From Chromatiales bacterium (GTDB lineage: Bacteria > Pseudomonadota > Gammaproteobacteria > Steroidobacterales > GCA-2729495): 64,000 bases of DNA. The notes under the pieces were generated by a model that saw nothing but the letters and a program-made list of their open reading frames with translations, had not been told where the DNA came from and searched no databases. Of this stretch, positions 1-15,545 are shown one piece after another. The position numbers and the translations under genes were made by a program. The DNA lies in contig JAFIFS010000046.1 of the NCBI GenBank assembly GCA_020831895.1, forward strand, positions 1-64,000, read 5' to 3'. Every line of letters starts with the position of its first letter. Within the stretch, counting starts at the first letter, position 1.

Positions 1-3000
1 CCGCAGCTTCACCTGGTCGTCGACACGGCCCAGCAGTTCCAGCTCCCCGTCCGACCGCCAGCGCGCACGGTCACCCGTCCGGTACATGCGCGCACCCGGC
101 TCTTCCGCGTACGGATCCGCGACGAAGCGCTCCGCCGTCAGATCCTCCCGGCCCGCGTAGCCCAGCGCCACGCCGGAACCACCGATCCACAGCTCGCCCA
201 CCACGCCCACCGGAACCAGCCCACCGTGCGCATCCAGCACGTAGCAGCGGGTGCCGGGGAAAGGCCGCCCGGCCGGCAGGGGCGCTGCCGGATCAGGCTC
301 GCCCTCGAACCAGCAGCTGTCGATGGTGCACTCGGCCAGTCCATAGGAGTTGATCACGCGTGCGCCCGGCGCACAGTGCTCGCGCAGCGCGAGGTACTCG
401 TGTCCGTACCAGAGATCCGAGCCGACGATGGCAAGGCGCAGCCGCCCGAGCCGAGGGTCTCGTTCCGCAAGCTCGGGCAGCAGCAGCCGGATCACCGCCG
501 GCACGAACTCGGCCACGCTGACGGCCTCGGTCGCGATGCGGGCCAGCAGCCGGGGCGGATCCAGCAACTCCTCGCGGGGGCAGATGACAAGATGGCCACC
601 GGTGGTGAGCGCCCGCACCCAGTCGCCGGTGAACACGTCGAAGCCGGCTGCCGCCATCTGCAGGTGCACGTCCTGTGGCGAGAGCTGGTAGACCCGCGAC
701 CAGGCGGCGGCGACGGCGGACAGGTTCGCGTGGCTGACGCTCACAGCGCGCGGCGCGCCAGTCGAGCCCGAGGTGAACAACGCATACGCCTCGGCGTCAG
801 GCTCCAGGCTGGGCGGAGGCCGGGCAGCCTCCTCCCCCGGCCTGTCTGCCAACAGCGCATCGACATTGATCTCCACCACGTGCTGGTTCGACACCGGCGC
901 CTCGCCGACCAGCATGCGGGCTGCGGACTGCGCAAGCAGGCTGGCCAGGCGGGCCGCCGGAAGCGCCGCATCCAGCGGCACGTAGGAGGCTCCGCTGCGC
1001 AGTATCCCGAGCACCGCCACGATGTAGCGGCAGCCCCGCGGCAGGCAGATCGCCACCCGGTCGCCCGGGCCGATGCCTGTACCCGCAAGCTGCGCGGCCA
1101 GCCGGCCCGAGGCACGGTGCAGGGCCCCGTAATCCAGCACGCCGTCGGCGGCGGTGACCGCCAGTGCATGGGGCTGCGCCTGCACGACGCGCTCGAACAG
1201 CGCCGTCACCGCCGGCAGCTGGCCGGGCAGCGGCCCGCCATCGCCCGCTGGCGCCAATGCACCGATATCCAGGCGCGTGACCGGCAGCCCGGGCTCCTCC
1301 AGCGCATGCGACAGCAGCGCGATCAGCGCGTCGGCCCACCGCTGGATCGTCACGGGCCTGAACAGCGAGGTCGCGTACTCGAACTGCAGCTCGAAGCCTG
1401 CGTCGTGCTCGGCAACGCTGAGCGCCAGATCGAAGGCCGAAACCCCGTGGTCGACGAGGCGATCCAGCCGGAACTTCAGGCCCGCGGCGACACGCTCACG
1501 CTCGCCGGTGCGCACCAGGTTGAACAGCACCTGGAACACCGGCGCATGGCTCAGCGCGCGCTCGGGCGCGAGGCGCTCGACCAGCTGCTCGAACGGCAGC
1601 GCCTGGTGCTGCTGCGCGCTGACCAGCTGCCCGCCGATCCGCTCGACGAGCTGCGAGAAGCTCGGCGTATCACCCAGGCCGGTGCGCAGCACGATCGTGT
1701 TGATGAACAGGCCGACCAGGGGCTCGAGGCCCTGCTCGGTGCGTCCCTCGACCGGGGTACCAACCAGCAGGTCGGGCTGGCCGCTCAGCCGGTGCAGCAG
1801 CGCCTTGAACGCGGCCAGCAGTACGACGAAGGTCGTCGTCCGCGACCTGCGCGCAAACTCGCGCACGCGCGCGGCCAGACCGGGGTCCAGGCTGCGTTCG
1901 TGCCAGGCACCCGCGTAGTCCTGCTCAGCGGGCCGCGGAAAGTCGGTGGGCAGGTCCAGCAGCGCTGGTGCGCCGGCCAGCCGGGCCTGCCACCAGTCGA
2001 CCAGCGGCTCGAGCGACTGCCCGGCCAGCTGCTGGCGCTGCCAGGCCGCGAAATCGGTATAGCGCAGCTCAAGCCCGGGCAACGCAGCCGGAACGGCTGT
2101 GCAGCTGGCCTCGTACAGGCGCGCAAGCTCCGCGAACAGGAGCCGGTTGCTGCTCGCATCGGAGACGATGTGATGGATCACCAGCAGCAGCCAGTGGCGC
2201 AGCGGACCCTCGCGCAGCAGCGTCACGCGCAGCAGGGGACCGCTGGCCAGGTCGAAAGACCTGCGGGCCAGCTGGGCCAGCTGGGCCGCGCGCGCCTGCG
2301 GGTCGCCAGCGGCCTCGACCTGCTCCAGCGCCAGGCTGAGCTCCGGCTCGACGACCAGGACAGGCTCACCGGCACGCTCCGGAAAACGGCAGCGCAGCGA
2401 TTCGTGGCGACCGACCAGCACATCCAGCGCCACCTGGAGCGCACCGGGGTTCAGCGGACCTTCGAGGCACAGCAGGCTGGCGATGTTCCAGGCCGGGCTG
2501 CCGGGATCGAGCTGGTCCAGGAACCACAGCCGCTGCTGGGCGAACGAGAGCTGGGCGGCGCCCGCGCCAGCCAGCCGCCTGGGACCGCGGCCCCGGCCAT
2601 CAGCAGGCTGAGCCTCGGCCAGCAGGCTGGCAAACGCCGCAAGATCCGGCGCCGAGTAGAGTTCGCGCAGCCCGGACTCGATACCCAGCCGGTCGCGCAG
2701 GCGGCTCATCAGCCGGATCGCCAGCAGCGAGTGCCCCCCCATGGCGAAGAAGTTGTCCTCACGCTGCACGGCCGGCAGGCCAAGCAGCTCGGCCCAGAGC
2801 AGCGCGATCTGCTGCTCCAGACCCGGTCGCGGCGGCGTTCCGGCGAAGTCCGGCGCTGGCGACGGGTCGATCCTGGGCAGCCGCAGCCGGTCGATCTTGC
2901 CACTCGGCGTCAGCGGCAGGCTGGCACACTCGGCCCAGAGCTCGGGCAGCATGGCTGAAGGGAGCCGACGTGAGGCATGGGCGCGCAGCGCATCGTGATC

Positions 3001-5730
3001 GATGCTTCGCCCCTCGGCCGGAACCAGCCAGGCGGCCAGGCGCGGATTCACGCCGGACTCCGGCTGCAGCTGCACGACGGCGCGGGCAATCTCCGGGCAC
3101 GACTCGAGCACCTGCTCGATCTCGGCCGGCTCGATGCGCAGCCCGCGCAGCTTGAGCTGACGGTCGCGGCGGCCCAGGCACTCGAGGCTGCCGTCGGGCA
3201 GCCAGCGCGCGAGGTCGCCAGTCCGGTAATACGGCCCGCCTTCGCAGGAGCCCGGCAGCGTGTCGAGATAGCGAGCGGCGGTGAGCGCGGGCTGGCGCCA
3301 GTAGCCGGGGCCGACACCGACGCCGCCGACGTGAAGCTCTCCGGGCACGCCCGGGGGCAAAGCACGGCCGCGACTGTCGAGCACGTGGACGCGCACGTTG
3401 GCGACTGGCCTGCCGATCGGCACGCGCGCGACATCCGCAGGCAGCTCACTGACCTCGGCGCAGGTCGCATCCCAGATCTCCGAGGTGCCGTAGGTGTTGA
3501 GCAGCAGCGCGGATCCCAGCGTGTCGCGGAAACGTCGGGCCAGCGCGGGCTGGAGTGGCTCACCGCTGGTGATGCAGACTCGCAGGCTGGCCAGCTGACG
3601 CGCCAGGTCAGGCATATCGTCGAGCAGGCCTTCCAGCAGCGAGGGCACGAGCACCAGCTGCGTCACGCGCTCGCGGGCAAGTGCGCCAGCAAGGGCGGCA
3701 GGATCGCTGGCGTGTTCGTCCGGGATCACGACGAGCGGGATTCCGTGCACCAGTGCGCCGAAGATCTCCCAGTAGGCATCGATGAAGTTGGGGCTCGTGC
3801 GCAGCGCGAAGCGGTCGCCAGGTCCATAGCCCCAGCGCTCCCACATCCAGTGCAGGCGGTTGACGGCACTGCGGTGCGTACCGGGTGCGCCCTTCGGCAA
3901 TCCGGTCGAGCCCGAGGTATAGAGGATCCACGCGATGTCCGTGGCGGCGGCCGGCCGCTCAGGCAAAGCTGCGGCCGGCGCCGGGGCGGGATCATCGACC
4001 AGCAGCCAGGGCCGCCCGCCGGAGGGCAGTCGGCGACGGGTCGCAGCGTCGGTCAGCAGCAGCCGTGGGTCGGCATCCTGCAGGATGTGGGTGAGGCGGT
4101 CGGGCGGGTAGCCGGGATCCAGCGGGACGATCACTGCGCCCGAGCGCAGCACGGCGAGCATCGACGTCACCAGCCTCGCCGAGCGCGGCAGCGCGATGCC
4201 GACCCGATCGCCAGGGCCCAGCCCCGCCGCAACCAACCGCGCCGCCAGCATGCGGGACTCGAGGGCAAGGTCCGCATAGCTGAGCCGTTCGTGGCCATCG
4301 ATGATCGCCAGCGAATCCGGGCTCCGGGCCACCTGCTCCAGAACCCAATGGTCCAGCGACATGGCCGGGTACGGTGCGTCCGTCGCGTTCCAGGCCGCGA
4401 GCCGTGCCTCGCACGCGGGGTCCAGCAGCGGCAGGTCGCCCAGACGCATGGAAGGGTCGCTCGCGATCGCCTGCAGCAGCGTCAGCCAGCAGCCAGGAAG
4501 CGCCGACATCACCGCCTCATCGTAAAGGCCTTCGTTCCAGGCGATGTACCCGCTCACGGCCTGTCCCGGGCCGGCGTCGGCCAGCGTGCACTCCAGATCC
4601 CACCACGACTGGCGCCGCAGCGGCAGCGTCCGGCTCGCGATGCGCAGCGGCGCGGTGACCGGCGCATCGCCCGGCAGGCTGTCGAAGGCGAACAGCACCT
4701 GGACCAGCGGGTGCTCGCGATACCTGCGCTCGGGCGCCAGCTCCGCGACCACCTCGCTGAAGGGCAGCGCACGGTGTGCCACCGCGCCCAGCACTGTCTC
4801 GCGCTCGTCACTCAGCAGTGCCTCGAAGCTGGAGGAGAAGTCTATCCTCGTGCGCAGCGCCGCCAGGTTGACCAGGCAGCCGACCACCCGCCTGAGTTCC
4901 GGCCGGTCGCGCAAGGTCATGGGCGTACCCACAGGGACGTCACCGGCATCAGCCAGCCTGCACAGCAGCAGGCGCCAGCTGGCCAGCAGCGCCATGAACA
5001 GCGTGCAGCCCCGCGCCCGGGCAAGCTCGCGCAGCGCATCGCCCAGCGCTGGCGGGATGCTGAAGGCGCGGCGGGATGCGGACCGCTGGCTGGTATCGGC
5101 CTGCCGTCGGAGCGGGCGCAGTGGCTGCGCTGGCAGACCCTCGAGCTGGCGGCGCCAGTACTCGCGCGCTCGCTTGTCGCCCTCGGCATCGACAGCCTCG
5201 TCCGCAAGGCCTGCGCAGTCGCCGGAGTGGAGGTGCACGGCATCGACATCTGCCGGCGCGGTCGCGTAAAGATGCGCCAGATCATCGCGGATCACCGTCA
5301 CAGACAGGCCATCGGCGAGCAGGTGATGCACAGTGACGATCAGGACATGGTGCTGGTCGGACAGCCGGCACAGGCGCAGGTCCAGCGGAATCCCACCGGA
5401 CAGGTCCAGAACCTTGTTGACCGCGACCGTGGCGAGATCGGCCAGCGCCTGCGCGGGATCGCCTGCCCCACCCAGATCCATGGGGTGCGGCAGCGGAACC
5501 GTGGCCGGCAGCTGCTGCTGAAAAGGTCCGTCAGGCCCGCTACCCAGGCAGCTGCGCAGCGCGGGATGCATCTCGCCCAGCCGCTGCCAGGCCTGCCCCA
5601 GCCGCGCGAGCTGAAGCGGACCATGCAGGTCAAGCAGGAACTGTTCGTTCGCGCTCGCGTCATCGGGGTACAGCGCCTGCAGGAACCAGAGACTCTGCTG
5701 GGCCCGGGAGAGCGGCTTGGCCCCTCCCAT
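1..5730 (-). CDS. Non-ribosomal peptide synthetase, C-A-T-C-A..., 3' end outside the window
   Basis: Cytosolic multimodular peptide synthetase, 1910 codons open to the window edge without a stop. Domain order read from the translation: condensation (HHLLADG near 5310-5330), adenylation (TSGSTG near 3900, YRTGDLARW near 3220), carrier (FFAMGGHSLLA near 2715-2745, Ser is the phosphopantetheine site), second condensation (HHIVSDA near 2165, final Gly replaced by Ala), second adenylation (FTSGSTG near 770, YRTGDRARW near 75) cut off after its A7/A8 region. By hand alignment to GrsA the first A domain reads roughly I-D-W-V-I-S-T-?-D-K, close to the beta-alanine code; the second reads DVGEIGSIDK, the published ornithine-type code. 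The start is ATG, 4 bases after the stop of the upstream NRPS gene, so the two are one transcript. No thioesterase is visible here. Confidence 0.95.
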   Translation of the reverse strand, partial: MGGAKPLSRAQQSLWFLQALYPDDASANEQFLLDLHGPLQLARLGQAWQRLGEMHPALRSCLGSGPDGPFQQQLPATVPLPHPMDLGGAGDPAQALADLATVAVNKVLDLSGGIPLDLRLCRLSDQHHVLIVTVHHLLADGLSVTVIRDDLAHLYATAPADVDAVHLHSGDCAGLADEAVDAEGDKRAREYWRRQLEGLPAQPLRPLRRQADTSQRSASRRAFSIPPALGDALRELARARGCTLFMALLASWRLLLCRLADAGDVPVGTPMTLRDRPELRRVVGCLVNLAALRTRIDFSSSFEALLSDERETVLGAVAHRALPFSEVVAELAPERRYREHPLVQVLFAFDSLPGDAPVTAPLRIASRTLPLRRQSWWDLECTLADAGPGQAVSGYIAWNEGLYDEAVMSALPGCWLTLLQAIASDPSMRLGDLPLLDPACEARLAAWNATDAPYPAMSLDHWVLEQVARSPDSLAIIDGHERLSYADLALESRMLAARLVAAGLGPGDRVGIALPRSARLVTSMLAVLRSGAVIVPLDPGYPPDRLTHILQDADPRLLLTDAATRRRLPSGGRPWLLVDDPAPAPAAALPERPAAATDIAWILYTSGSTGLPKGAPGTHRSAVNRLHWMWERWGYGPGDRFALRTSPNFIDAYWEIFGALVHGIPLVVIPDEHASDPAALAGALARERVTQLVLVPSLLEGLLDDMPDLARQLASLRVCITSGEPLQPALARRFRDTLGSALLLNTYGTSEIWDATCAEVSELPADVARVPIGRPVANVRVHVLDSRGRALPPGVPGELHVGGVGVGPGYWRQPALTAARYLDTLPGSCEGGPYYRTGDLARWLPDGSLECLGRRDRQLKLRGLRIEPAEIEQVLESCPEIARAVVQLQPESGVNPRLAAWLVPAEGRSIDHDALRAHASRRLPSAMLPELWAECASLPLTPSGKIDRLRLPRIDPSPAPDFAGTPPRPGLEQQIALLWAELLGLPAVQREDNFFAMGGHSLLAIRLMSRLRDRLGIESGLRELYSAPDLAAFASLLAEAQPADGRGRGPRRLAGAGAAQLSFAQQRLWFLDQLDPGSPAWNIASLLCLEGPLNPGALQVALDVLVGRHESLRCRFPERAGEPVLVVEPELSLALEQVEAAGDPQARAAQLAQLARRSFDLASGPLLRVTLLREGPLRHWLLLVIHHIVSDASSNRLLFAELARLYEASCTAVPAALPGLELRYTDFAAWQRQQLAGQSLEPLVDWWQARLAGAPALLDLPTDFPRPAEQDYAGAWHERSLDPGLAARVREFARRSRTTTFVVLLAAFKALLHRLSGQPDLLVGTPVEGRTEQGLEPLVGLFINTIVLRTGLGDTPSFSQLVERIGGQLVSAQQHQALPFEQLVERLAPERALSHAPVFQVLFNLVRTGERERVAAGLKFRLDRLVDHGVSAFDLALSVAEHDAGFELQFEYATSLFRPVTIQRWADALIALLSHALEEPGLPVTRLDIGALAPAGDGGPLPGQLPAVTALFERVVQAQPHALAVTAADGVLDYGALHRASGRLAAQLAGTGIGPGDRVAICLPRGCRYIVAVLGILRSGASYVPLDAALPAARLASLLAQSAARMLVGEAPVSNQHVVEINVDALLADRPGEEAARPPPSLEPDAEAYALFTSGSTGAPRAVSVSHANLSAVAAAWSRVYQLSPQDVHLQMAAAGFDVFTGDWVRALTTGGHLVICPREELLDPPRLLARIATEAVSVAEFVPAVIRLLLPELAERDPRLGRLRLAIVGSDLWYGHEYLALREHCAPGARVINSYGLAECTIDSCWFEGEPDPAAPLPAGRPFPGTRCYVLDAHGGLVPVGVVGELWIGGSGVALGYAGREDLTAERFVADPYAEEPGARMYRTGDRARWRSDGELELLGRVDDQVKLR

Positions 5731-5734
5731 CGGT

Positions 5735-8611
5735 TCAGCCTGCTGCCCGGGCTGCATCGACGGGATAACGGCGCGACACAGGCTCCGGGTGCTCGCGCCG
5801 CAGCCACTGGGCAAGCCCGGCAATCGTGGGCGCCTCGAACAGGGCCGTGAGCATGACGGGGTGATCGAGCAGGCGCTGCAGCCCTGTGGTGAGCTGGACG
5901 GCGGCAATCGAATCACCACCCAGCGCGAAGAAGTCGTCGTGCACGCCAATCTGGCCGGCCGGGAGCACCTGCTGCCAGAGTTCGATCAGGTCGGCCTCGA
6001 GCGCATCGGCCGCAGCGACGGGGGCCTGCTCCAGCGCGGGTCGGGTCCAGCCCGGCTCCGGCAGCGCGCGCCGGTCGAGCTTGCCGCTGGCACTCACCGG
6101 CAGCCTCGCGACCGGTACCCAGGCAGCCGGCAGCATCCACGCGGGCAGCTGCGCCGCCAACCAGTCACGCAGGCTGTCCACTGACGGCAAGCCGGCCGGC
6201 GCAGCCAGTGCATCCAGCAGCGCCCGATGCAGCGGGTTGGCGCCACGGCTGGTCTCGCGCTGGCGGCTGACATGCTCCAGGCGCCGCGAAGCCAGCGCAC
6301 CCTGCAACGTCGCGCTGATACGGTAGTCCGGGCAGCGTGGGTCCGATTCACAGCCAATGTGCCAGTGCAGCTCCAGACAGTCACCGGCCTGCACCGGGAC
6401 GGGCCCCGAATCGCCGAGTGGCAGCAGCACCGGCAGCCAGGCCTGCTGGGCCTCGAGGTAGTCGACGCTCGCCCCGGCACCGAAACCGACCACGGTCCAC
6501 AGCAGCAGCCCGTCGAGCAGGCCGTCGCGCGCGATCCGCAGCGTCGCCGCGCCGCTGAATGTGGTCTCCAGCGAGCCGCTGAAGTCCAGCACCTCGAATT
6601 CGGCCACATCGCTGATCAGCTGTTCCGGCGGCAGCCCGCGCACGCACAGGCGCACATCGAAGGGCTCGCCGTTCGCGCCGAAGAGACGCTCGAGGTAAGG
6701 ACGCGCGAGAGCGGCGAAGCGCGGGGACGCCCGTACGGCCGCGGGCAGCTCGACGGCAGCGATTCGCGTGGTGCAACGTTCAGGCACGGCGACGCAGTCG
6801 TCGGCCAGCGCCGGCTGGATGGCATTCCAGAGTGCGACAATGCCGTCGGCGCTGCCGATGTTGCCGATGATGCCCTGGGTCAGCACCTCGACCGGCTCGG
6901 GCAGGTCCAGCGAGGCTGCATCGGCCTCGATCACCGTGATCCGCGCCTCGAGGCCCAGCTGCGCGACGAGTGTGCGTGCGGAGGCAGCGGCCTCGGGCTG
7001 CAGCTCGACCGCGTAGACATGCCTGGCGCCGGCGGCGGCCGCCAGCCGAGCCAGCAGCGCATCGCGGCCGGTGCCCATGTCAAGCACTGCGCGTCCGGCC
7101 ACAGTCCGTGCGAGCGCGTCGCGATAGGCCGCCACCCGTGTGGTCTCGACTCCCATCAGGTCGTAAAGCAGGGGGTCATAAACCTGGTAACCCCCGAGCG
7201 ATGGCCAGAACTCGACCCCGCTGTCCACGTCTGCCTCGTGTTCGAGCCACGCCACCAGTCGCGACTCGCCAGCCGGGTCCTCACGCAGCCCGACCGCGGC
7301 GTCGCGAATGGAGGGGTGCGCCCGCAGCGCATCCTCGATCTCGGACGGCTCGATCCGGTAGCCGTGATGCTTGAACTGGGTATCGAGCCTGCCAGCAAAC
7401 TCAAGCAGTCCCGACTTGTCGCGTTGCGCGAGGTCGCCCGTGCGGAACGCGGGCAGCCTGCGGCCCCCGACCTCGATCTCGACGAAGCGTCGCGCGGTCA
7501 GCTCAGGCTCGGCGGGATAGCCTGCGGCGACGCAGTCTCCGGCCACGCAGATCTCGCCCCTGCCCGGCCCGGCCAGTGGCCGGCCGGCCTCATCCAGCAG
7601 CAGCAGCTCGCGCCCCGCCAGCGGGTAGCCCAGCGGGATACGGCCCGCGCCGTGCTCGGAGGCGCGATGCTCATGCAGGCAGACCTGGCCGCCAGTCTCG
7701 GTCAGCGCGTAGCTGCTGACCAGACGCGGCCCGCCCTCGGGATAGCGGCTGAACCAGGCCTCGAGCTCCGCCGCGCGGACGGGCTCGCCGCTGAGTGACA
7801 CCAGGCGCAAGTCCGCCGGAGCGAGGCGGGCGGCGGCAGAGCTGCCCAGCAGTGTCCGCAGCGCTGTCGGCGTCAGGCTCAGCACGGTCACCCGCGCCTG
7901 CAGCAGCAGCTCGACCAGGGCTCCCGGATCCCTGCGCCGCTCCGGCGGAACGACAACGAGGCAGGCTCCATGCAGCAAGGCACCGAACAGCTCCCACACC
8001 GAGTATCCGAAGGCGCAGGAATGCAGCCAGCTCCAGCGATCGCCTGCCCCGAGGGAAAGCGCCTGCGTCAGCGGGGGGAACAGCCCGGCGAGGTTGCGCT
8101 CGAGCACACGGACCGCGCGCGGCTGACCGGCCGATCCCGAGGTGAACATCACGTAGGCGGTATCGCCGGGTGCGCTGGCACAGGCCACCGTCGCGACTGG
8201 CCCGGCCGGGGCCGCTGCGGACCAGTCGAGCCGCGGGCCATGCCAGGCGACATCGGCATGCTTCGCCTGCCCGAGCAGCAAGTCGGGCGGCACGATCCGG
8301 AGCATCGCGTCCAGCCGGCTGGCGGGCAGGCTGGTATCCAGCGGCATCCAGGCGGCGCCGGTCTTGCGCACGGCCAGCATGGCGACGACGTAATCCAGTG
8401 CGTGGGGCAGCAGGATCGCGACCAGCCTGCCCGGCCCCATGCCCGCATCACGCAGCTTGGCGGCCAGCGTGGTGGCGGCCCGTTCCAGGCCCGCGTAGTC
8501 CAGGCTTCGCGGACCGTCCAGGATGGCCGGCGCTGATGGCCTTTCACAGGCATGACGCCAGACCGCCTGGACCAGGCCCGCCGCCGCAGACTCCATTCGG
8601 GAAACTCTCAC
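5735..8611 (-). CDS. NRPS starter module: adenylation domain interrupted by a PRMT-like methyltransferase, plus carrier domain
   Basis: A 958-residue initiation module with no condensation domain. Residues about 10-425 form an adenylation domain (FTSGSAGQPRAV, YxLTETGG, FRTGDLAQRD, A8 region with HGYRIEPSEIE). About residues 460-755 are an insert with a class I SAM fold (VLDMGTGRDALL near 7050-7090) followed by a beta-barrel-like region, the layout of protein arginine methyltransferases. The adenylation fold then resumes with A9 (LPAWMLP) and A10 (ASGKLDRRALP), then a carrier (FFALGGDSIAAV, Ser near residue 896). The code position 235 is Gly instead of Asp, so the substrate probably lacks a free alpha-amino group. 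The start is GTG at 8611, overlapping the upstream stop as GTGA; ATG at 8596 is an alternative with GAGAG upstream. Confidence 0.93.
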   Translation of the reverse strand: MRVSRMESAAAGLVQAVWRHACERPSAPAILDGPRSLDYAGLERAATTLAAKLRDAGMGPGRLVAILLPHALDYVVAMLAVRKTGAAWMPLDTSLPASRLDAMLRIVPPDLLLGQAKHADVAWHGPRLDWSAAAPAGPVATVACASAPGDTAYVMFTSGSAGQPRAVRVLERNLAGLFPPLTQALSLGAGDRWSWLHSCAFGYSVWELFGALLHGACLVVVPPERRRDPGALVELLLQARVTVLSLTPTALRTLLGSSAAARLAPADLRLVSLSGEPVRAAELEAWFSRYPEGGPRLVSSYALTETGGQVCLHEHRASEHGAGRIPLGYPLAGRELLLLDEAGRPLAGPGRGEICVAGDCVAAGYPAEPELTARRFVEIEVGGRRLPAFRTGDLAQRDKSGLLEFAGRLDTQFKHHGYRIEPSEIEDALRAHPSIRDAAVGLREDPAGESRLVAWLEHEADVDSGVEFWPSLGGYQVYDPLLYDLMGVETTRVAAYRDALARTVAGRAVLDMGTGRDALLARLAAAAGARHVYAVELQPEAAASARTLVAQLGLEARITVIEADAASLDLPEPVEVLTQGIIGNIGSADGIVALWNAIQPALADDCVAVPERCTTRIAAVELPAAVRASPRFAALARPYLERLFGANGEPFDVRLCVRGLPPEQLISDVAEFEVLDFSGSLETTFSGAATLRIARDGLLDGLLLWTVVGFGAGASVDYLEAQQAWLPVLLPLGDSGPVPVQAGDCLELHWHIGCESDPRCPDYRISATLQGALASRRLEHVSRQRETSRGANPLHRALLDALAAPAGLPSVDSLRDWLAAQLPAWMLPAAWVPVARLPVSASGKLDRRALPEPGWTRPALEQAPVAAADALEADLIELWQQVLPAGQIGVHDDFFALGGDSIAAVQLTTGLQRLLDHPVMLTALFEAPTIAGLAQWLRREHPEPVSRRYPVDAARAAG

Positions 8612-9348
8612 GGCTGCAGCGCGCAGTGAATCGCCGTGACCGGCGGGTTGTCCAGGTACTCGCGCCAGTACGCTGCGGGACGCTCGGCCAGGCCGGCGGG
8701 ATCAAGCGCAAGCCCGACCCACTCGATGCGCATGAACCCCGCATCGCGCAGCGCGCGCTCGTAGGTCAGGCGCGCGAAATGGCGCACGTCGAAACTGAAC
8801 AGCCGCCCGGCAGCCAGCATCTGGTAGGTGATCTCCGAACCATCCCGTCGCGGCAGCTCGACGTACTTGCTGAAACCCGCCGCAGGATAGGCATGGCAGG
8901 CACGTGCGGCCTGGTCCGGATTCTCGTTCAGGCCGACGAAGCGCCCGTCGGGCCGCAGATGAGCGGCGATGGCGCGGCAGAGCTGGTGCAGGTCATCACT
9001 GTCGTCGGCATAGTGCAGCAGGTACGCCCCCAGCACGAGATCGAAACGCCCGAGGCCGCTGATCTCCTGCGCCCGGCCCAGGTGATATTCGATCCCCGGG
9101 TCCTGGCCGCCCCGCCGGGCCTGATCGAGCATGGCCGGGGACTCGTCCACGCCGACGACCCGGGTCGCACCCGAGGCGCGCAGCTCGCGGGCCCAAATGC
9201 CGCTGCCACAACCGAGGTCGAGCACGCTGCGGCCCCGGACATCACCCAGCAGGCGGCGCAGGGTGAAGCCCTCGACGTGGCGTCGCAGCGGCGAGCTGCG
9301 GGTTGCCTCGTAGGCCTCTGCAATCGAGTCATATTGCGCAGCGGCCAC
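8608..9348 (-). CDS. Class I SAM-dependent methyltransferase
   Basis: A 246-residue soluble methyltransferase. Motif I is VLDLGCGSGIWARELR near residues 41-56, motif II ends in VGVDESPAML, and the post-I acidic region is present, all typical of the UbiE/SmtA-like fold. The substrate cannot be read from sequence. Its stop overlaps the GTG of the NRPS starter gene by 4 bases (GTGA), and its start lies 15 bases after the deaminase stop, so it is translationally coupled to the NRPS and probably acts as a tailoring enzyme on the peptide or on the starter acid. A role in a housekeeping pathway is possible but less likely given the coupling. Confidence 0.88.
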   Translation of the reverse strand: MAAAQYDSIAEAYEATRSSPLRRHVEGFTLRRLLGDVRGRSVLDLGCGSGIWARELRASGATRVVGVDESPAMLDQARRGGQDPGIEYHLGRAQEISGLGRFDLVLGAYLLHYADDSDDLHQLCRAIAAHLRPDGRFVGLNENPDQAARACHAYPAAGFSKYVELPRRDGSEITYQMLAAGRLFSFDVRHFARLTYERALRDAGFMRIEWVGLALDPAGLAERPAAYWREYLDNPPVTAIHCALQP

Positions 9349-9363
9349 CGCAGGCGCACCCCC

Positions 9364-9837
9364 TCAGCCCGCGCACGCCGGCGCATGCCAGCGGGAGAGC
9401 AGTTCCCGGCTTCGGGCCGCCAGCAGGCCACCGCTGAGCTCGACTCCGGGCACGCTGCCTGCCGGCAGCTCGGGCTGGCCGGACACGGCGGAAAAGTCGG
9501 CAAGACTCGCCGCGTACACGATACGGCCTATGCCTGCATAGGCGCAGGCAGCCACGCACATGGCACAGGGCTCGACCGAGACATACAGCTCGCAGCCACC
9601 AAGCCGCGGCCGGCGCAGCGCGCGGCAGGCTGCCCTGATCGCGACGATCTCGGCATGCGCCGTCGCATCGGGACCTGCAATCAGCCCATTGTGCGCGGAG
9701 GCCAGCAACTCACCGTCGCGCACGATGCAGGCCCCGATGGGAGCCTCACCCGCATTGAGCGCCCGCAGCGCCTGCTCGAGCGCGAGCTCCATGAAGCGCT
9801 GCCCGGCCCCGCCGTGCACGGCGTCGTCCGCTCTCAT
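9364..9837 (-). CDS. Nucleoside/base deaminase, cytidine-deaminase fold
   Basis: A 157-residue zinc deaminase. It shows the HAE catalytic motif ([11 protein letters not shown], near residues 67-77) and the PCxMC zinc motif ([15 protein letters not shown]), with [21 protein letters not shown] at the N-terminus as in guanine deaminase and TadA-like enzymes. The usual length is about 150-165 residues. It lacks enough distinctive sequence to choose between guanine, cytosine or tRNA adenosine as substrate; TadA normally has a longer conserved C-terminus, so a small-molecule deaminase is preferred. Its ATG overlaps the queD stop as ATGA. The context (queD before, NRPS genes after) would allow a role in handling a pterin or purine intermediate, but that is inference. 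Confidence 0.88.
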
Positions 9838-10196
9838 TCATCCTCGCCAGTGTAGATCGCGCCGCTGGTGCAGGTCTCATGCACGGTGACGCGGCAGAGC
9901 TCAGGCAGTACGGGCTTGAGTTCGCGCCAGATCCAGCGCGCGACCATTTCACTGGTCGGGTTCTCGAGGCCCGGAATGTCGTTCAGGTAATGGTGGTCCA
10001 GCCTCTCGTATATTGGCCGGAAACGCGCCTTGATCTCGCCGAAATCCATGATCCAGCCCGTATGCGGGTCCATGCTGCCCCGCACGTGGATCACGCCGCG
10101 CCAGGAATGCCCATGCAGGCGCGCGCACTTGTGGCCTGGCTCCACGTTGGGCAGCCGGTGGGCCGCTTCGAACACGAATTCCTTGAAGATTTCCAT
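9834..10196 (-). CDS. queD: 6-carboxy-5,6,7,8-tetrahydropterin synthase (QueD)
   Basis: Converts 7,8-dihydroneopterin triphosphate to 6-carboxytetrahydropterin, the second step toward queuosine and other 7-deazapurines. The 120-residue sequence tracks E. coli QueD closely along its whole length: [20 protein letters not shown] with the catalytic Cys and zinc histidines, [29 protein letters not shown] and the terminal ETCTSGAIY with the catalytic Glu. I chose the ATG at 10196 because [13 protein letters not shown] matches the family N-terminus and GGAG lies about 9 bases upstream; an in-frame start at 10229 would add an unrelated Arg-rich stretch. It is the first gene of the minus-strand operon leading into the NRPS genes and is divergent from fno. 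Confidence 0.95.
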
Positions 10197-10457
10197 GAAT
10201 GACTCCACCCGGCCGGCGCGTCCTCGCAACCGGGTCGTGTTCCGCAGGGACTGGCGCCGCGCAGCGCCCGGCCAGCCGCTTTGTCGTCACCGCGGGCCCG
10301 CCCGGATCGCGGGCGTGCCCGGACCCGGCCCTTGCCGGCCGGGGCAGCTGGCGACCTGTATTCTGCCACAGCACGTCCGGGCCCTCCCGCACGGGCGGGC
10401 GGCGATGCGGCGCATGCTGGTAATATGGGGGGCCACCTCCAGCGGAGCGAATTCCTG
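10197..10457. other. Divergent intergenic region between queD and the F420 operon
   Basis: 261 bases holding the start signals of two divergent operons. GGAG precedes queD (revcomp near 10205) and CGGAG precedes fno near 10443. I see no convincing sigma-70 hexamer pair, no preQ1-type aptamer and no long inverted repeat. Open frames crossing it are continuations of shadows with Arg/Ala/Pro-rich composition. Confidence 0.5.
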
Positions 10458-11129
10458 ATGAGCGAGTCCCGGAAAATTGGCCTGATCGCCGTCATCGGCG
10501 GCACGGGCGCACTGGGCGGCGGGCTGGCCCGCCGCTGGGCTGCCGACGGTTGTGCGGTGGTCCTGGGCTCCCGCGACGGCCAGAAGGCCGAAGCAGCAGC
10601 CCGCAAGCTGGCTGAATCGCTGCCGGGCGGCGATGTGCGCGGCATGGAGAACTCGGCCGCCGCGCTGGCCGCCGACCTCGTCGTGCTGACGGTCCCGTTC
10701 CCGCAGCAGGAGCCCGTGCTCAAGTCCATTGCCGCTGGCCTGGAGGGCAAGATCCTGGTGGACGCGACAGTCCCCCTGGTACCGCCACGGGTCGGCCGGG
10801 TCCAGCTGCCGCCAGAGGGCGCTGCCGCAATCCGGGCCCAGCGGCTGGTTCCTGCAGCGCGGGTGGTCTCGGCGTTCCAGAACGTCGCTGCCGACCGGCT
10901 CGCAGGTTCAGGCACGGTGGACTGCGACGTGCTCGTCAGCGGTGATGACCCGGAGGCACGCGAGACCGTGGTGACTCTCGCTGCGCGGGCCGGGCTGCGT
11001 GCCTGGCATGCAGGCCCGCTGCAGAATGCGGCCGCGGCCGAGGCACTGACATCGGTGCTGATCTTCCTGAACAAGCGCTATGGCGAGGGCCATGCCGGCC
11101 TGCGCATCACCGGCCTCGACGGGGCCTGA
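10458..11129 (+). CDS. fno: F420H2:NADP+ oxidoreductase (NADPH-dependent F420 reductase)
   Basis: Transfers hydride between NADP(H) and coenzyme F420, here presumably charging F420 from NADPH in the cytosol. The 223-residue sequence has the Rossmann motif IAVIGGTGALGGGLARR right at the N-terminus, VVLGSRD for NADP phosphate binding, VLTVPF, LVDATVPL, SAFQNVAA and the C-terminal NKRYGEGHAGLRITGL of the NpdG/Fno family. The start MSESRKIG at 10458 is chosen because it places the Rossmann strand at residue 8; the longer open frame from 10281 is Arg/Pro-rich filler. It is the first gene of the F420 biosynthesis operon, 37 bases before cofE. Confidence 0.95.
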   Translation: MSESRKIGLIAVIGGTGALGGGLARRWAADGCAVVLGSRDGQKAEAAARKLAESLPGGDVRGMENSAAALAADLVVLTVPFPQQEPVLKSIAAGLEGKILVDATVPLVPPRVGRVQLPPEGAAAIRAQRLVPAARVVSAFQNVAADRLAGSGTVDCDVLVSGDDPEARETVVTLAARAGLRAWHAGPLQNAAAAEALTSVLIFLNKRYGEGHAGLRITGLDGA

Positions 11130-11166
11130 TGGAAGACAGCCGGCGGCACTGGCCGCCGGGGTCACG

Positions 11167-11931
11167 ATGGAGCCGCCAGCGCTGTCTGTCTACCCGCTGC
11201 GTCACCTGCCAGAGGTCAGGCAGGGAGATGACCTGGCGGCGTTGATCGCGAACGCAGCCGGACGGGCGGGCTGGTGCTGGATGCCGGGCGATGTGCTGGC
11301 CGTGGCCCAGAAGATCGTATCCAAGGCAGAAGGCCGCCTGGTGCCGCTGCGCGAGATCCAGCCATCCGCCGCGGCGTTCGAGATGGCGAGCCGCGCCGAC
11401 AAGGACCCGCGAATCGTGGAGCTGATCCTGCGCGAGTCGCGCTCCATCCTGCGGGTCACTCGTGGCGTCATCATCGCGGAACACCGCAGCGGCGTGATCC
11501 TCGCGAATGCCGGAATCGATCGCTCGAACACGGGGGTGGACGAGGAAAGCGTTCTGCTCCTGCCCGAGGATGCCGACGCAAGCGCCGCGCGAATCCGCGC
11601 TGGCCTTGCCTCCGCCCATGAGCTGGCCCCGGCCATCCTGGTGACCGACAGCATCGGCCGGCCCTGGCGGCTGGGCACCACCGGCGTTGCGATCGGCTGC
11701 GCCGGGCTGCCGGCGCTGGTCGATCTGCGCGGGCAACCGGACCGGGCGGGCCGCGCCCTGCAGGTGAGCGAGATCGCACTGGCCGACAGTCTTGCCGCAA
11801 CGGCGGTGCTGACCATGGGAGAGGGCGCGGAATCCACGCCGGCGGCGCTGCTGCGCGGGATGCGCTTGCCGGCAGGCAGTTCAACGGCCCTGGCACTACT
11901 GCGTGCGCCCGGAGAGGACCTGTTCCGGTGA
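11167..11931 (+). CDS. cofE: Coenzyme F420-0:L-glutamate ligase
   Basis: GTP-dependent ligase adding gamma-linked glutamates to F420-0. At 254 residues it matches stand-alone CofE and lacks the C-terminal nitroreductase-like domain of mycobacterial FbiB. Visible family motifs: GDVLAVAQKIVSKAEGR (near residues 40-56), GVILANAGIDRSNTG (118-132) and VTDSIGRPWRLGTTGVAIG (159-177). The ATG at 11167 gives MEPPALSVYPLRHLPEV, the expected N-terminus; an upstream in-frame ATG at 11080 lies inside fno. Its stop overlaps the GTG start of cofD (GTGA). Second gene of the operon. Confidence 0.95.
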   Translation: MEPPALSVYPLRHLPEVRQGDDLAALIANAAGRAGWCWMPGDVLAVAQKIVSKAEGRLVPLREIQPSAAAFEMASRADKDPRIVELILRESRSILRVTRGVIIAEHRSGVILANAGIDRSNTGVDEESVLLLPEDADASAARIRAGLASAHELAPAILVTDSIGRPWRLGTTGVAIGCAGLPALVDLRGQPDRAGRALQVSEIALADSLAATAVLTMGEGAESTPAALLRGMRLPAGSSTALALLRAPGEDLFR

Positions 11932-12914
11932 GCCACGATGAACACTGGCTGCTGCTCTGCGGCGGCGTTGGAGGCGCGAAGCTTGCGCTGGGACTGGCGC
12001 ACGAGCTCCCGCCCGGGTCGCTGACCGTGCTGGTGAACACCGGCGATGATTTCCGCCACCTGGGCCTCTGGATTTCGCCGGACCTCGATACGGTGACCTA
12101 TACCCTGGCTGGCCTGGTCAACCCGGCAACGGGCTGGGGCCTGGCCGGGGATACGTTCCACTGCCTCGAGGGGCTGTCGAGACTCAGCGGGCCCGACTGG
12201 TTCCGCCTGGGCGACAGGGACCTCGCGACGCACCTCGAGCGCACGCGCCGGCTGGCGGCCGGAGAGCGGCTGGGATCGATCACATCGGACCTGGCGAGTC
12301 GCCTCGGTGTCAGCGCCAGGATCTGGCCGATGAGCGACGACCCGGTGGCCACGCTGCTGCATACCGATTCGGGGCTGCTGGAGTTCCAGGACTATTTCGT
12401 CCGCAGGCAGGCCGCGCCGGTCGTGCGGGCCATCGAGTACCACGGCGCCAGTGAAGCCGGACCCGCGCCCGGCCTGGCAAACCTGCTGAAGGACCCGGGG
12501 CTGGCCGGAATCATCATCGCACCATCGAACCCCTGGCTCAGTATCGACCCGATCCTGGCCCTGCCGGGCCTGCGGCAGTCACTCGCCGATGCACGGGCTC
12601 CGGTGGTCGCTGTCAGCCCCCTGATCGCCGGGCAGGCCGTCAAGGGGCCCAGCGCGAAGATCATGCGCGAGCTGGGGCTTCCGCCAGACGCGCAGGGCAT
12701 CGCGCGTCACTATCTGTGCCTGCTCGACGGCTTCATACTGGATGACAGGGATGAAGCCGAGGCGGCAGGCATCGGCCTGCTGGGACTGGAGACGGTGGCT
12801 GCACCCACGCTGATGCGTTCGCTCGACGACCGCCGCAGTCTGGCGCGCGTCGCCTTGGGTCTCGCACGGCGGCTGGGCAACTCAATAGGCAGGCCACACC
12901 GGCAGACAGGTTGA
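11928..12914 (+). CDS. cofD: F420-0 synthase, phospholactyl/phosphoenolpyruvyl transferase
   Basis: Transfers the activated phospho-acid from a GDP donor to the deazaflavin Fo, giving (dehydro-)F420-0. The 328 residues show the GGVGGAKLALGL nucleotide motif near residue 11, VNTGDDFRHLGLWISPDLDTV (36-56) that binds donor and Fo, PSNPWLSIDPIL and SPLIAGQAVKGPSAKIM near 220, all diagnostic of CofD/FbiA. Length is normal. The start is GTG, coupled to the cofE stop; the stop is 7 bases before cofC. Which phospho-acid (2-phospholactate, PEP or 3-phosphoglycerate) is used cannot be settled from sequence by eye. Confidence 0.96.
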   Translation: MSHDEHWLLLCGGVGGAKLALGLAHELPPGSLTVLVNTGDDFRHLGLWISPDLDTVTYTLAGLVNPATGWGLAGDTFHCLEGLSRLSGPDWFRLGDRDLATHLERTRRLAAGERLGSITSDLASRLGVSARIWPMSDDPVATLLHTDSGLLEFQDYFVRRQAAPVVRAIEYHGASEAGPAPGLANLLKDPGLAGIIIAPSNPWLSIDPILALPGLRQSLADARAPVVAVSPLIAGQAVKGPSAKIMRELGLPPDAQGIARHYLCLLDGFILDDRDEAEAAGIGLLGLETVAAPTLMRSLDDRRSLARVALGLARRLGNSIGRPHRQTG

Positions 12915-12921
12915 TCGAACG

Positions 12922-13587
12922 ATGACGCAGCTCCGAGCCCTCGTCCCAGTGAAGCCGTTCGCCCGGGCCAAGAGCCGTCTGGCAGGACGCCTCGGGCGCG
13001 ACGCGTGCGCCGAGCTGGCCCGCTGCATGCTGCGCGACGTGCTGCGCGCGCTCTTCGCCGCCGAGGACATCGCGGGCATCGTACTGCTCAGCAACGAGCC
13101 CGGGCTGGACAGCCTGCCAGAGACGCGGGACTGCGAGATCCGGCGCGAGACCGGAGATTTCTGCAGCTCGCTCGACAGCGAGGCCAGGCGCCTCGCCGCG
13201 GAGGGCAACCAGAGCCTGCTGGTGCTGCCGGCTGACCTGCCTACCGTGGCCGGGCGGGACATCCGCGCACTCTGGCAGAGCCATCACGGCGGGTTGACGC
13301 TGTGCCGGGCCGGCCGCGACGGCGGCAGCAACGCGCTGCTGTTGACCCCGCCGGACGCCATCAGCTTCCGGTTTGGTCCGGACAGCGCTGCCAGGCACGC
13401 CGAGGCTGCGCGGTCAGCCGGGGTGGCCTGCGAAGTCCTGGACCTGCCGGCGTTCGCGAATGACATAGACATGCCGGCGGATCTAGACTGGCTTCTGGAG
13501 CAGCGGATCGCATCGGCCAGCGTGGCCTGGCTGCGCGCGAGCGGGATTGCGGCGCGGCTGCGAGACGCGAGACAGGAGGTCTGCTGA
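12922..13587 (+). CDS. cofC: Phospholactate/phosphoenolpyruvate guanylyltransferase
   Basis: Makes the GDP-linked phospho-acid donor used by CofD. The 221-residue sequence has the nucleotidyltransferase start RALVPVKPFARAKSRLAG, LPADLPTVAGRDI near residue 100 with metal-binding Asp, DGGSNALLL, and FANDIDMPADLDWLL at the C-terminus, as in CofC/FbiD. The gene overlaps fbiC by one base (TGATG), so the two are coupled. Some proteobacterial CofC proteins use 3-phosphoglycerate and make 3PG-F420; a structural comparison of the substrate pocket is needed to say which type this is. Confidence 0.94.
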   Translation: MTQLRALVPVKPFARAKSRLAGRLGRDACAELARCMLRDVLRALFAAEDIAGIVLLSNEPGLDSLPETRDCEIRRETGDFCSSLDSEARRLAAEGNQSLLVLPADLPTVAGRDIRALWQSHHGGLTLCRAGRDGGSNALLLTPPDAISFRFGPDSAARHAEAARSAGVACEVLDLPAFANDIDMPADLDWLLEQRIASASVAWLRASGIAARLRDARQEVC

Positions 13588-15545
13588 TGATGTCCCCAGG
13601 GCGTGACGAGCTGATCGAGCTGGGCCAGGCACCGCTCGACGAACTGATGGCCGGCGCCGCGGCGTTACGCGACGCGGCGCATGGCGCAACGGTGACCTGG
13701 TCACCCAAGGTTTTCATACCACTGACCGAGCTGTGCCGCGACGTCTGCCACTACTGCACCTATGCCAAGACGCCGGGTCGTCTCGCTGCTCCCTACATGA
13801 CACCGGAGCAGGTGCTTGCCATAGCGCGCGCCGGTCAGCAGGCTGGCTGCCGCGAGGCGCTGTTCACGCTCGGCGACAAGCCCGAGCTGCGCTACCGCGT
13901 GGCGCGTGAGGCGCTGGCCAGCCTCGGTCATGCGACGACGACCGACTACCTCTCAGCCATGGCGCGGCTGGTGCTCGAGAAAACTGGCCTCTTGCCTCAC
14001 CTGAACCCCGGCGTGCTCGAAGAGGACGACTATCGGCGTCTGCGTCCACTGGCTCCTTCCATGGGGCTGATGCTCGAATCAGCCTCCCCACGTCTGGCCC
14101 GGCGTGGCGGACCTCACTTCGGATCGCCCGACAAGCAACCCCAGGTGAGGCTTGACTCGCTGCGTGCCGCCGGCAAGGCCGGCGTGGCTATGACCAGCGG
14201 GCTGCTGATCGGCATAGGCGAGACCCGTGAGGAGCGCATCGACAGCCTGCTCGCCCTGCGCACGCTGCATGAGGAGTACGGCCACCTGCAGGAGCTCATC
14301 CTGCAGAACTTCGTACCGAAACCAGGCACGCTGATGGCCGGCGCCCCGGCACCTGCGTTCGAGGAACTGCTGTGGACGGTCGCGATCGCCCGCCACGCTT
14401 TCGGCGGCGGTTTCAGCCTGCAGGCGCCTCCGAACCTCAACGCCGGCCGCCTCGCCCGGCTGGTCGATGCCGGCATCAATGACTGGGGCGGCGTCTCACC
14501 CGTGACGCCGGACCACGTCAATCCGGAGTCACCCTGGCCTCACCTGGCCGAGCTGGAGGCCGCGACAGCCGAGGCCGGCAAGACGCTGGTGCCGCGACTG
14601 ACTCTTTATCCTGCGATGGTTCGGGAGCCGGACCGCTGGATTGCACCCGAACTGCGCACGCACGTGCTGCGCGCGGCCGACAGCAGCGGGTTCGCCCGGG
14701 ACTGCCCATGGTCCCCAGGCAGCGGCCAGCCGCCCCCGCCGGCGATCCCGGCCGGTCCACGGCGCGACCGCTTCATCGAAACCCTTCTCGGGCGTATCGC
14801 CCAGGGCAAACGCCCCGACGAGGCCGACATCAGCCGGCTGTTCTCCGCCCGGGGCCCGGACCTCACGCACGTGATCCGGGCAGCCGACGAAATGCGCGCG
14901 GCCCAGGCAGGTGAGCAGGTGAGCTATGTCGTCAATCGCAACATCAACTACACGAACCTCTGCAGCTACCAGTGCAGTTTCTGTGCGTTCTCCAAAGGCC
15001 GCACGCACGAGGACCTGCGGGGAGCACCCTACGTGCTGGACATGGAGGAGATCGGAAGGCGCAGCGCGGAAGCCTGGGCGCGTGGCGCGAGCGAGGTCTG
15101 CCTGCAGGGAGGGATCCACCCGTCATTCACAGGCCGCACCTACCTGGACATCCTTGCCGCCGTCAAGGCAGCGGCGCCGGGCCTGCACGTGCACGCGTTC
15201 TCGGCGCTAGAGGTCAGCCATGGCGCAAAGACTCTCGGCATCAGCGTCGCGGAGTTCCTCGCCGAGCTTCGGGTCTCGGGCCTGGCCTCGTTGCCTGGCA
15301 CGGCGGCAGAGATCCTGAGCGACGACATCCGCGCAGTGATCTGCCCGGACAAGCTGAACACCGGGGAATGGCTTGCAGTGGCCCGGCAGGCCCACGAACT
15401 GGGCCTGCGGACCACGGCAACCATCATGTTCGGCCACGTGGAGCATCCCGTGCACTGGGCCAGGCACCTTCTCGCGATCCGGGACCTCCAGGCTGAGACC
15501 GGTGGCTTCACCGAATTCGTACCCCTGCCCTTCGTGCACATGTAA
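13587..15545 (+). CDS. fbiC: FO synthase FbiC (CofG-CofH fusion), interrupted by an in-frame TAA in CofH
   Basis: Radical SAM fusion that joins tyrosine and a ribityl-uracil to form Fo, the F420 chromophore. The CofG half has its cluster motif CRDVCHYC near residues 48-55. The CofH half begins after a Pro-rich linker near residue 395 and has CSYQCSFC near residues 457-464. The frame stops with TAA at 15543-15545 directly after PLPFVHM, a point where intact FbiC/CofH proteins continue with a conserved (E/N)xPLY segment. The next codons in the same frame (APLYRGGGARPGPT...) encode exactly the missing part, so the normal protein of about 787 codons is split by a single codon. Fusion length, motifs and operon position are otherwise normal. 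Confidence 0.93.
   Translation: MMSPGRDELIELGQAPLDELMAGAAALRDAAHGATVTWSPKVFIPLTELCRDVCHYCTYAKTPGRLAAPYMTPEQVLAIARAGQQAGCREALFTLGDKPELRYRVAREALASLGHATTTDYLSAMARLVLEKTGLLPHLNPGVLEEDDYRRLRPLAPSMGLMLESASPRLARRGGPHFGSPDKQPQVRLDSLRAAGKAGVAMTSGLLIGIGETREERIDSLLALRTLHEEYGHLQELILQNFVPKPGTLMAGAPAPAFEELLWTVAIARHAFGGGFSLQAPPNLNAGRLARLVDAGINDWGGVSPVTPDHVNPESPWPHLAELEAATAEAGKTLVPRLTLYPAMVREPDRWIAPELRTHVLRAADSSGFARDCPWSPGSGQPPPPAIPAGPRRDRFIETLLGRIAQGKRPDEADISRLFSARGPDLTHVIRAADEMRAAQAGEQVSYVVNRNINYTNLCSYQCSFCAFSKGRTHEDLRGAPYVLDMEEIGRRSAEAWARGASEVCLQGGIHPSFTGRTYLDILAAVKAAAPGLHVHAFSALEVSHGAKTLGISVAEFLAELRVSGLASLPGTAAEILSDDIRAVICPDKLNTGEWLAVARQAHELGLRTTATIMFGHVEHPVHWARHLLAIRDLQAETGGFTEFVPLPFVHM

What the first reader, a model, noticed from the sequence alone, without database searches (positions are those of the whole stretch)
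6295..7180. PRMT-like methyltransferase inserted into an NRPS starter adenylation domain
Within the NRPS gene 5735-8611 the adenylation domain is interrupted between its A8 region (near 7340-7400) and A9/A10 (near 6075-6150) by about 300 residues. The insert has the protein arginine methyltransferase layout: a YDxxLYDLMG..TR.AAYRDAL lead-in, a SAM motif VLDMGTG, AGARHVYAVE, RITVIEADA, then a beta-barrel-like part containing LLWTVVGFG and a late GDCLELHWHI. N-methyltransferase inserts between A8 and A9 are known in NRPS; I know of no established case with a PRMT-type fold and barrel. The usual catalytic double-Glu loop reads LTQGIIGNIGSADG, so the first acidic residue is Gln, which may mean altered chemistry. 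Coordinates are given high-to-low because the gene is on the minus strand.
Basis: partly seen in the sequence, partly recalled or inferred. Interest (0 to 1): 0.85.

Follow-up and report, generated by a model that had tools for sequence, protein, structure and literature searches.

The report
PRMT-fold methyltransferase inside peptide-synthetase loading module
A methyltransferase with the full fold of the protein-arginine-methylating enzymes sits inside the loading domain of a peptide-building enzyme; such inserts are already known, but this one belongs to a lineage that has lost the usual catalytic residues and sits in a gene cluster, conserved across a whole bacterial family, that looks as if it builds a pteridine-capped peptide next to the genes for coenzyme F420.

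Summary
NRPS1 (window 5738-8611, minus strand) is a starter A-T module whose A domain is interrupted between a8 and a9 by ~320 residues. AlphaFold2 (pLDDT 92.7) and Foldseek give PRMTs over the full length, barrel included. The claim of no precedent does not hold: the same domain, 36-39% identical and in the same site, lies in the cryptophycin producer's CrpC-like NRPS and in the Tistrella pTM3 NRPS, and a published paper calls LynB3-OMT PRMT-like. What is new is the lineage. In all 31 same-family rows checked the PRMT double-Glu is replaced (SE...E to QG...D; one row QS...D), while all 23 outgroup rows keep both Glu. The A domain has also lost the Asp that binds the alpha-amine (D235G in all 30 readable rows). 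The module lies in a superoperon found in nearly all genomes of this uncultured gammaproteobacterial family: QueD, a deaminase, a ToxA-type N-methyltransferase, a NRPS line ending in FolE, divergent from Fno-CofE-CofD-CofC-CofGH. Best model: the starter is a carrier-bound pteridine (lumazine) carboxylic acid that this domain methylates. The fold, homology and losses are shown; substrate and reaction are inferred.

The parts
5738..8611 (-). NRPS1: starter module A(N)-[PRMT-fold MT]-A(C)-T, 958 aa, GTG start, no C domain (stop 5735-5737)
7292..8557 (-). A domain N-terminal part, a1-a8 (residues 19-440). Specificity code GYWSSSSGQK; Asp235 replaced by Gly (AFGYSVWE at 7991-8014)
6257..7231 (-). 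Inserted PRMT-fold methyltransferase (residues ~461-785): N-terminal helices, SAM Rossmann domain, beta barrel
   Evidence: AF2 pLDDT 92.7; Foldseek PRMTs E 1e-22, TM 0.64-0.78; phmmer/hmmsearch PRMTs
7067..7087 (-). SAM motif I VLDMGTG
6842..6880 (-). Former double-Glu loop TQGIIGNIGSADG: S to Q, first Glu to Gly, second Glu to Asp
6428..6445 (-). QAWLPV, at the position of the PRMT THW loop (His absent)
6032..6181 (-). A domain C-terminal part with a10 (GKLDRR)
5801..5992 (-). Carrier (T) domain with GGDSI
1..5738 (-). NRPS2, C-A2([I/V]DWVISTDAK)-T-C-A3(DVGEIGSIDK)..., cut by the contig edge at window position 1; start codon not assigned
8608..9348 (-). Stand-alone class I methyltransferase, ToxA family (azapteridinedione N-MT)
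9364..9837 (-). Zinc deaminase of the CDA/TadA/guan(os)ine deaminase superfamily (HAE, PCAMC motifs intact)
9834..10196 (-). QueD, 6-carboxytetrahydropterin synthase (TIGR03367 over its cut-off)
10281..11129 (+). NADPH-dependent F420 reductase (Fno/NpdG), start of the divergent F420 operon
11080..11931 (+). CofE
11928..12914 (+). CofD
12922..13587 (+). CofC
13587..15545 (+). CofGH-type FO synthase

Best explanation
The insert is a PRMT-fold, SAM-dependent methyltransferase of the side-chain-methylating ('Ms') type. It works in cis: the interrupted A domain activates a starter acid and loads it on the adjacent T domain, and the insert methylates that carrier-bound starter before the first condensation. 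In this lineage the starter is most likely not an amino acid but a pteridine-6-carboxylic acid, probably a lumazine. FolE and QueD would make 6-carboxytetrahydropterin, the deaminase would turn the pterin into a lumazine, and the ToxA-type enzyme would add one ring N-methyl. The PRMT-fold domain, with its Glu pair rebuilt as Gln-Gly...Asp, would add another methyl to a ring N (or O). The product would be a methyl-lumazine-capped peptide (starter-betaAla-Orn-?-Gly-?). Shown: fold, insertion site, homology, loss of both Glu and of Asp235, gene neighbourhood. Inferred: cis action, substrate, order of steps, methylated atom.
For: PRMT fold. Same insert at the same site in known O-methyltyrosine pathway producers (PMC10127204). 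SAM motif and acidic SAM-ribose residue conserved. Loop QG...D in 31 of 31 same-family rows (one with S for G) against E...E in 23 of 23 others; the same-family clade has 100/100 support. D235G in all 30 readable same-family A domains, Asp kept in both reference A domains. QueD equivalog. FolE directly after the last T domain in 17 genomes, including the window's own genome (contig C93, two tandem copies), with extra FolE paralogues per genome. MT and deaminase in 31 of 32 loci. MT hits ToxA structures at E 2.5e-36, next family 1e-14; ToxA N-methylates reumycin in vitro (PMC6667456). Lumazine-6-carboxylate peptides exist in fungi (PMC4377984).
Against: No substrate, reaction or product was measured. 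Genera g4, g7 and g9 keep MT, deaminase and NRPS but have no QueD in the cluster; G016 shows no PTPS-family gene at all and G006/G008 only a distant one. FolE is not adjacent in G006, G008, G014, G016 or G022. QueD is the only copy in the window genome and could serve queuosine, since QueC is present. The deaminase's substrate is unknown. The starter code has no characterised match that I know of.
Confidence: 0.45

Rival explanations
1. Ordinary side-chain O-methyltransferase insert acting on a carrier-bound aromatic amino acid such as tyrosine, as proposed for CrpC-, didemnin- and LynB3-type modules.
For: Homologous insert at the same site in those pathways; PMC10127204.
Against: Both catalytic Glu that all those relatives keep are lost. 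The A domain lost Asp235 and its code is not Tyr-like: GYWSSSSGQK against DASTIAGIGK/DASTLAAVCK.
Confidence: 0.1
2. The insert is catalytically dead and kept as a structural or SAM-sensing part of the loading module.
For: Both residues of the PRMT catalytic pair are changed and the THW His is absent.
Against: The SAM-binding residues are invariant across genera. The replacement QG...D is itself fixed rather than drifting. A-domain inserts of this family are methylating domains in described systems.
Confidence: 0.15
3. Methylation of a simple keto or hydroxy acid starter, for example O-methylation of an enol, in which no general base is needed; compare Glu to Gln in the unrelated O-MT LynB2.
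For: Gly at position 235 fits an acid without alpha-amine (known for hydroxy-acid A domains, recalled). LynB2-OMT uses Gln in place of Glu for an enol (PMC10127204).
Against: Does not explain the conserved QueD, deaminase, ToxA-type MT and FolE.
Confidence: 0.13
4. The starter is another GTP-derived heterocyclic acid, such as 7-carboxy-7-deazaguanine, or a deazaflavin-related acid tied to the F420 genes.
For: FolE and QueD also start the deazaguanine pathway, QueC is encoded, and the F420 operon is syntenic.
Against: No QueE-like gene was seen in the cluster; ToxA acts on a pteridine-like dione; no gene links FO to the NRPS.
Confidence: 0.17

Closest known systems
LynB3-OMT / LynB5 (lyngbyapeptin B NRPS; PMC10127204)
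   Same: PRMT-like methyltransferase placed within an A domain; presumed side-chain O-methylation
CrpC-like NRPS of Nostoc sp. ATCC 53789 (cryptophycin producer; L138)
   Same: Homologous insert (36% identity) at the same a8-a9 site
   Different: Keeps SE...E, Asp235 kept with code DASTIAGIGK, elongation module
Tistrella mobilis pTM3 NRPS (didemnin producer; L137)
   Same: Homologous insert (39%) at the same site
   Different: Keeps SE...E, Asp235 kept, a long further segment follows the insert before a10 (residues 1292-1761; presumably the N-MT)
KtzH (Ms) and ColG (Ms-Mb) interrupted A domains (PMC11355689)
   Same: Side-chain methyltransferase inserted between a8 and a9
   Different: Act on serine; whether their Ms is PRMT-type was not tested here
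Class I PRMTs (PRMT1, PRMT6, CARM1)
   Same: Full-length fold with SAM domain and beta barrel
   Different: Double Glu and THW His absent; not a protein methyltransferase by context
Penilumamides / terrelumamides (fungal lumazine peptides; PMC4377984)
   Same: Methylated lumazine-6-carboxylic acid as N-terminal cap of a peptide
   Different: Fungal compounds; penilumamide cluster uncharacterised as of 2023 (PMC9861175); not shown to be made here
Pepteridine cluster of Photorhabdus (PMC5384830)
   Same: NRPS-like parts together with FolE and PTPS-type pteridine genes
   Different: Acylated pterin made with a pyruvate-dehydrogenase-like complex; not an A-domain-activated pteridine acid

Membership tests
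PRMT fold (class I PRMT) | SAM Rossmann domain followed by beta barrel, full-length match | tested here: met
PRMT fold (class I PRMT) | Double-Glu loop binding the guanidine | tested here: not met
   E to G and E to D
PRMT fold (class I PRMT) | THW loop with catalytic His | tested here: not met
   QAW in its place
PRMT fold (class I PRMT) | Methylates protein arginine | not testable with these tools
   needs biochemistry; context argues against it
Side-chain methyltransferase insert (Ms) of interrupted A domains, PRMT-like branch | Insertion between a8 and a9 | tested here: met
Side-chain methyltransferase insert (Ms) of interrupted A domains, PRMT-like branch | Sequence homology to known inserts of this branch | tested here: met
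   36-39% over the whole domain; tree
Side-chain methyltransferase insert (Ms) of interrupted A domains, PRMT-like branch | Glu pair conserved in the branch | tested here: not met
   23 of 23 relatives have E...E, 31 of 31 same-family rows do not
Side-chain methyltransferase insert (Ms) of interrupted A domains, PRMT-like branch | A domain activates an amino acid (Asp235) | tested here: not met
   Gly235 in all 30 readable rows
Backbone N-methyltransferase insert (Mb, TioS type) | Similarity of the insert to the TioS M domain | tested here: not met
   No TioS (5wmm) hit for the insert among the matches listed at E up to 1 (best 60 of 68); 5wmm matches only the A part
Lumazine peptide pathway | Pteridine acid activated and capped on a peptide | not testable with these tools
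   gene content only

The most novel reading that the evidence does not exclude
An uncultured gammaproteobacterial family makes, as a near-universal trait, a methylated pteridine(lumazine)-capped nonribosomal peptide. An A domain without Asp235 activates a pteridine-6-carboxylic acid as starter, and a PRMT-fold domain, stripped of its double Glu, methylates the pteridine ring on the carrier protein. The pathway is coupled to F420 biosynthesis.
Probability: 0.4. Interest if true: 0.85.

Novelty: new variant of a known kind. Interest (0 to 1): 0.62.

Why it matters
It moves the question from 'a PRMT in an NRPS', which has precedents, to a testable case of a PRMT fold whose catalytic pair was rebuilt together with the substrate pocket of the A domain that carries it. 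If the starter is a pteridine carboxylic acid, it would be a bacterial NRPS that loads a pteridine, would suggest how lumazine peptides can be assembled (the penilumamide cluster was uncharacterised as of 2023, PMC9861175), and would explain why an NRPS is conserved beside the F420 genes across a whole family, which is unusual for secondary metabolism.

Tried and rejected
Ordinary NRPS N-MT (TioS type): rejected, no match of the insert to 5wmm. Large plus-strand ORFs 226-2958 and 2977-5850 as genes: rejected, no Pfam or NCBIfam family; they are antisense to NRPS2. First translation of window 1-5738 was out of frame; corrected. First cluster-wide A-domain code extraction missed most downstream domains because of a narrow pattern; redone. 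The BFVD search added nothing specific. Considered: QueD as dedicated to the pathway in every genome; weakened by its absence from the cluster in g4, g7 and g9. The key review of interrupted A domains (PMC8341866) was not held, and KtzH and ColG sequences could not be fetched, so their place relative to this branch is untested. A census over the class and phylum found the QG...D form only in the window's family.

Full report
What is there. The minus-strand gene 5738-8611 encodes 958 residues: an A domain with no C domain before it, an insert, the last part of the A domain with a10, and a T domain. The insert lies between a8 (GRLDTQFKHHGYRIEP) and a10 (GKLDRR). Its sequence hits in the PDB are PRMTs (PRMT4.2 and PRMT6, E about 2e-8; with the family profile PRMT6 at 8e-25). 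AlphaFold2 on the insert with 33 relatives gives mean pLDDT 92.7. The 50 best Foldseek matches in the PDB are all PRMTs, aligned over 330-370 columns with TM-scores (normalised by query, or by target for single-domain PRMTs) mostly 0.64-0.78, so the barrel is included. The model of the whole module has pLDDT 86.4 but pTM 0.56, so relative domain placement is uncertain.

Is it without precedent? No. PMC10127204 reports that in LynB3 a methyltransferase within the A domain resembles arginine methyltransferases and presumably O-methylates tyrosine. A protein search of plasmids found the same domain, in the same site of an A domain, in Nostoc sp. ATCC 53789 (cryptophycin producer, gene order PKS-NRPS-NRPS as for crpB-crpC-crpD; 36% identity) and in Tistrella mobilis plasmid pTM3 (39%; that this is the didemnin cluster is from memory). 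A PKS carries one (L046), and actinobacterial and two further proteobacterial genomes carry it as a separate gene, in several cases beside NRPS genes. Side-chain MT inserts between a8 and a9 are a recognised class (KtzH, ColG; PMC11355689).

What is different. All relatives outside the window's family keep both PRMT glutamates at the expected spacing (23 of 23). In the family the columns read Q (31 of 31), G (30 of 31, one S) and D (31 of 31). The family's inserts form one clade with 100/100 support and a long stem. The SAM motif and the acidic residue after strand 2 are invariant or nearly so, so SAM binding is probably kept. In the A domain, position 235, normally the Asp that holds the alpha-amine, is Gly in all 30 readable family rows, code G[FY][WF]S.S[ST]G[QRN]K, while both reference A domains keep Asp. 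Position numbering follows GrsA and rests on my knowledge of that code.

Neighbourhood. 34 of 37 family genomes have the insert (G015, G021 and G032 do not; in G020 it is split across contigs), and it is in an NRPS-type frame throughout. The order QueD-deaminase-MT-NRPS1 on one side and Fno-CofE-CofD-CofC-CofGH divergently on the other recurs with little change: MT 31, deaminase 31, CofE 28, Fno 26, CofD 26, CofC 24, QueD 23 and CofGH 22 of 32 loci, many gaps being contig ends. The downstream line has the same codes in many genera: [IV]DWVISTDAK, close to beta-alanine; DVGEIGSIDK, ornithine; DAQHVGGTVK, unassigned; DILQLGLIWK, glycine; DAQHVGGTVK again (code assignments from memory). Two genera differ at module 3 and after. 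No thioesterase domain was seen by pattern. Directly after the last T domain stands FolE, GTP cyclohydrolase I, in 17 genomes, among them the window's own genome on contig C93, where it is doubled. Family genomes hold 2-4 FolE copies.

The stand-alone MT matches ToxA structures at E 2.5e-36 over its whole length, while the next family is at 1e-14. ToxA N-methylates reumycin, an azapteridinedione, in vitro (PMC6667456). QueD passes the curated cut-off for 6-carboxytetrahydropterin synthase. The deaminase has the zinc motifs and scores below the TadA cut-off.

Synthesis. GTP cyclohydrolase I, 6-carboxytetrahydropterin synthase, a deaminase, a pteridine-type N-MT and a starter A domain without an amine anchor all point to a pteridine-6-carboxylic acid, probably a lumazine, as starter. 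The PRMT-fold domain would then methylate it on the T domain. Methylated lumazine-6-carboxylic acid peptides exist in fungi (PMC4377984), and the penilumamide gene cluster was uncharacterised as of 2023 (PMC9861175). My probabilities: PRMT-fold methyltransferase domain, 0.97; active methyltransferase on the carrier-bound starter, 0.75; starter without alpha-amine, 0.8; starter a pteridine carboxylate, 0.45. The role of F420 is unknown: the synteny is shown, the link is not.

Limits. Genomes of the family are mostly MAGs from a family that the tools leave unnamed; its public records are labelled Gammaproteobacteria, Chromatiales and the like. The window ends at a contig edge inside NRPS2, so the rest of the line in this genome is inferred from contigs C51 and C93 and from relatives.

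Noticed in passing
window 9834-15545: An F420 operon (Fno, CofE, CofD, CofC, CofGH) stands divergently beside the NRPS operon in nearly all family genomes; the functional link is unknown.
   Followed up: partly
L171 (G000 C93:7000-9775): Two tandem FolE genes directly after a terminal T domain in the window's own genome; a third FolE lies elsewhere (C80).
   Followed up: yes
G016, G008, G006 NRPS tails; G002 tail (L141): No thioesterase or reductase pattern at the end of the assembly line; chain release is unexplained.
   Followed up: partly
L046:2082-12842(-): The same PRMT-fold methyltransferase inside a large PKS/AMP-ligase protein of another family, with intact SE...E.
   Followed up: partly
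L109, L111, L119-L128, L139: Stand-alone actinobacterial versions of the domain (ORFs of about 370-620 aa); L109 and L111 lie between large NRPS genes.
   Followed up: partly
L163, L164: Stand-alone copies of the domain next to NRPS genes in two other proteobacterial genomes (G656, G575), SELIGVIGSSEG loop.
   Followed up: partly
L079: Public record titled Rheinheimera tuosuensis carries the family's cluster; the MAG label may be wrong.
   Followed up: no
window 226-2958 and 2977-5850 (+): Very long plus-strand ORFs antisense to NRPS2 with no family match; probably GC-rich shadow frames.
   Followed up: yes
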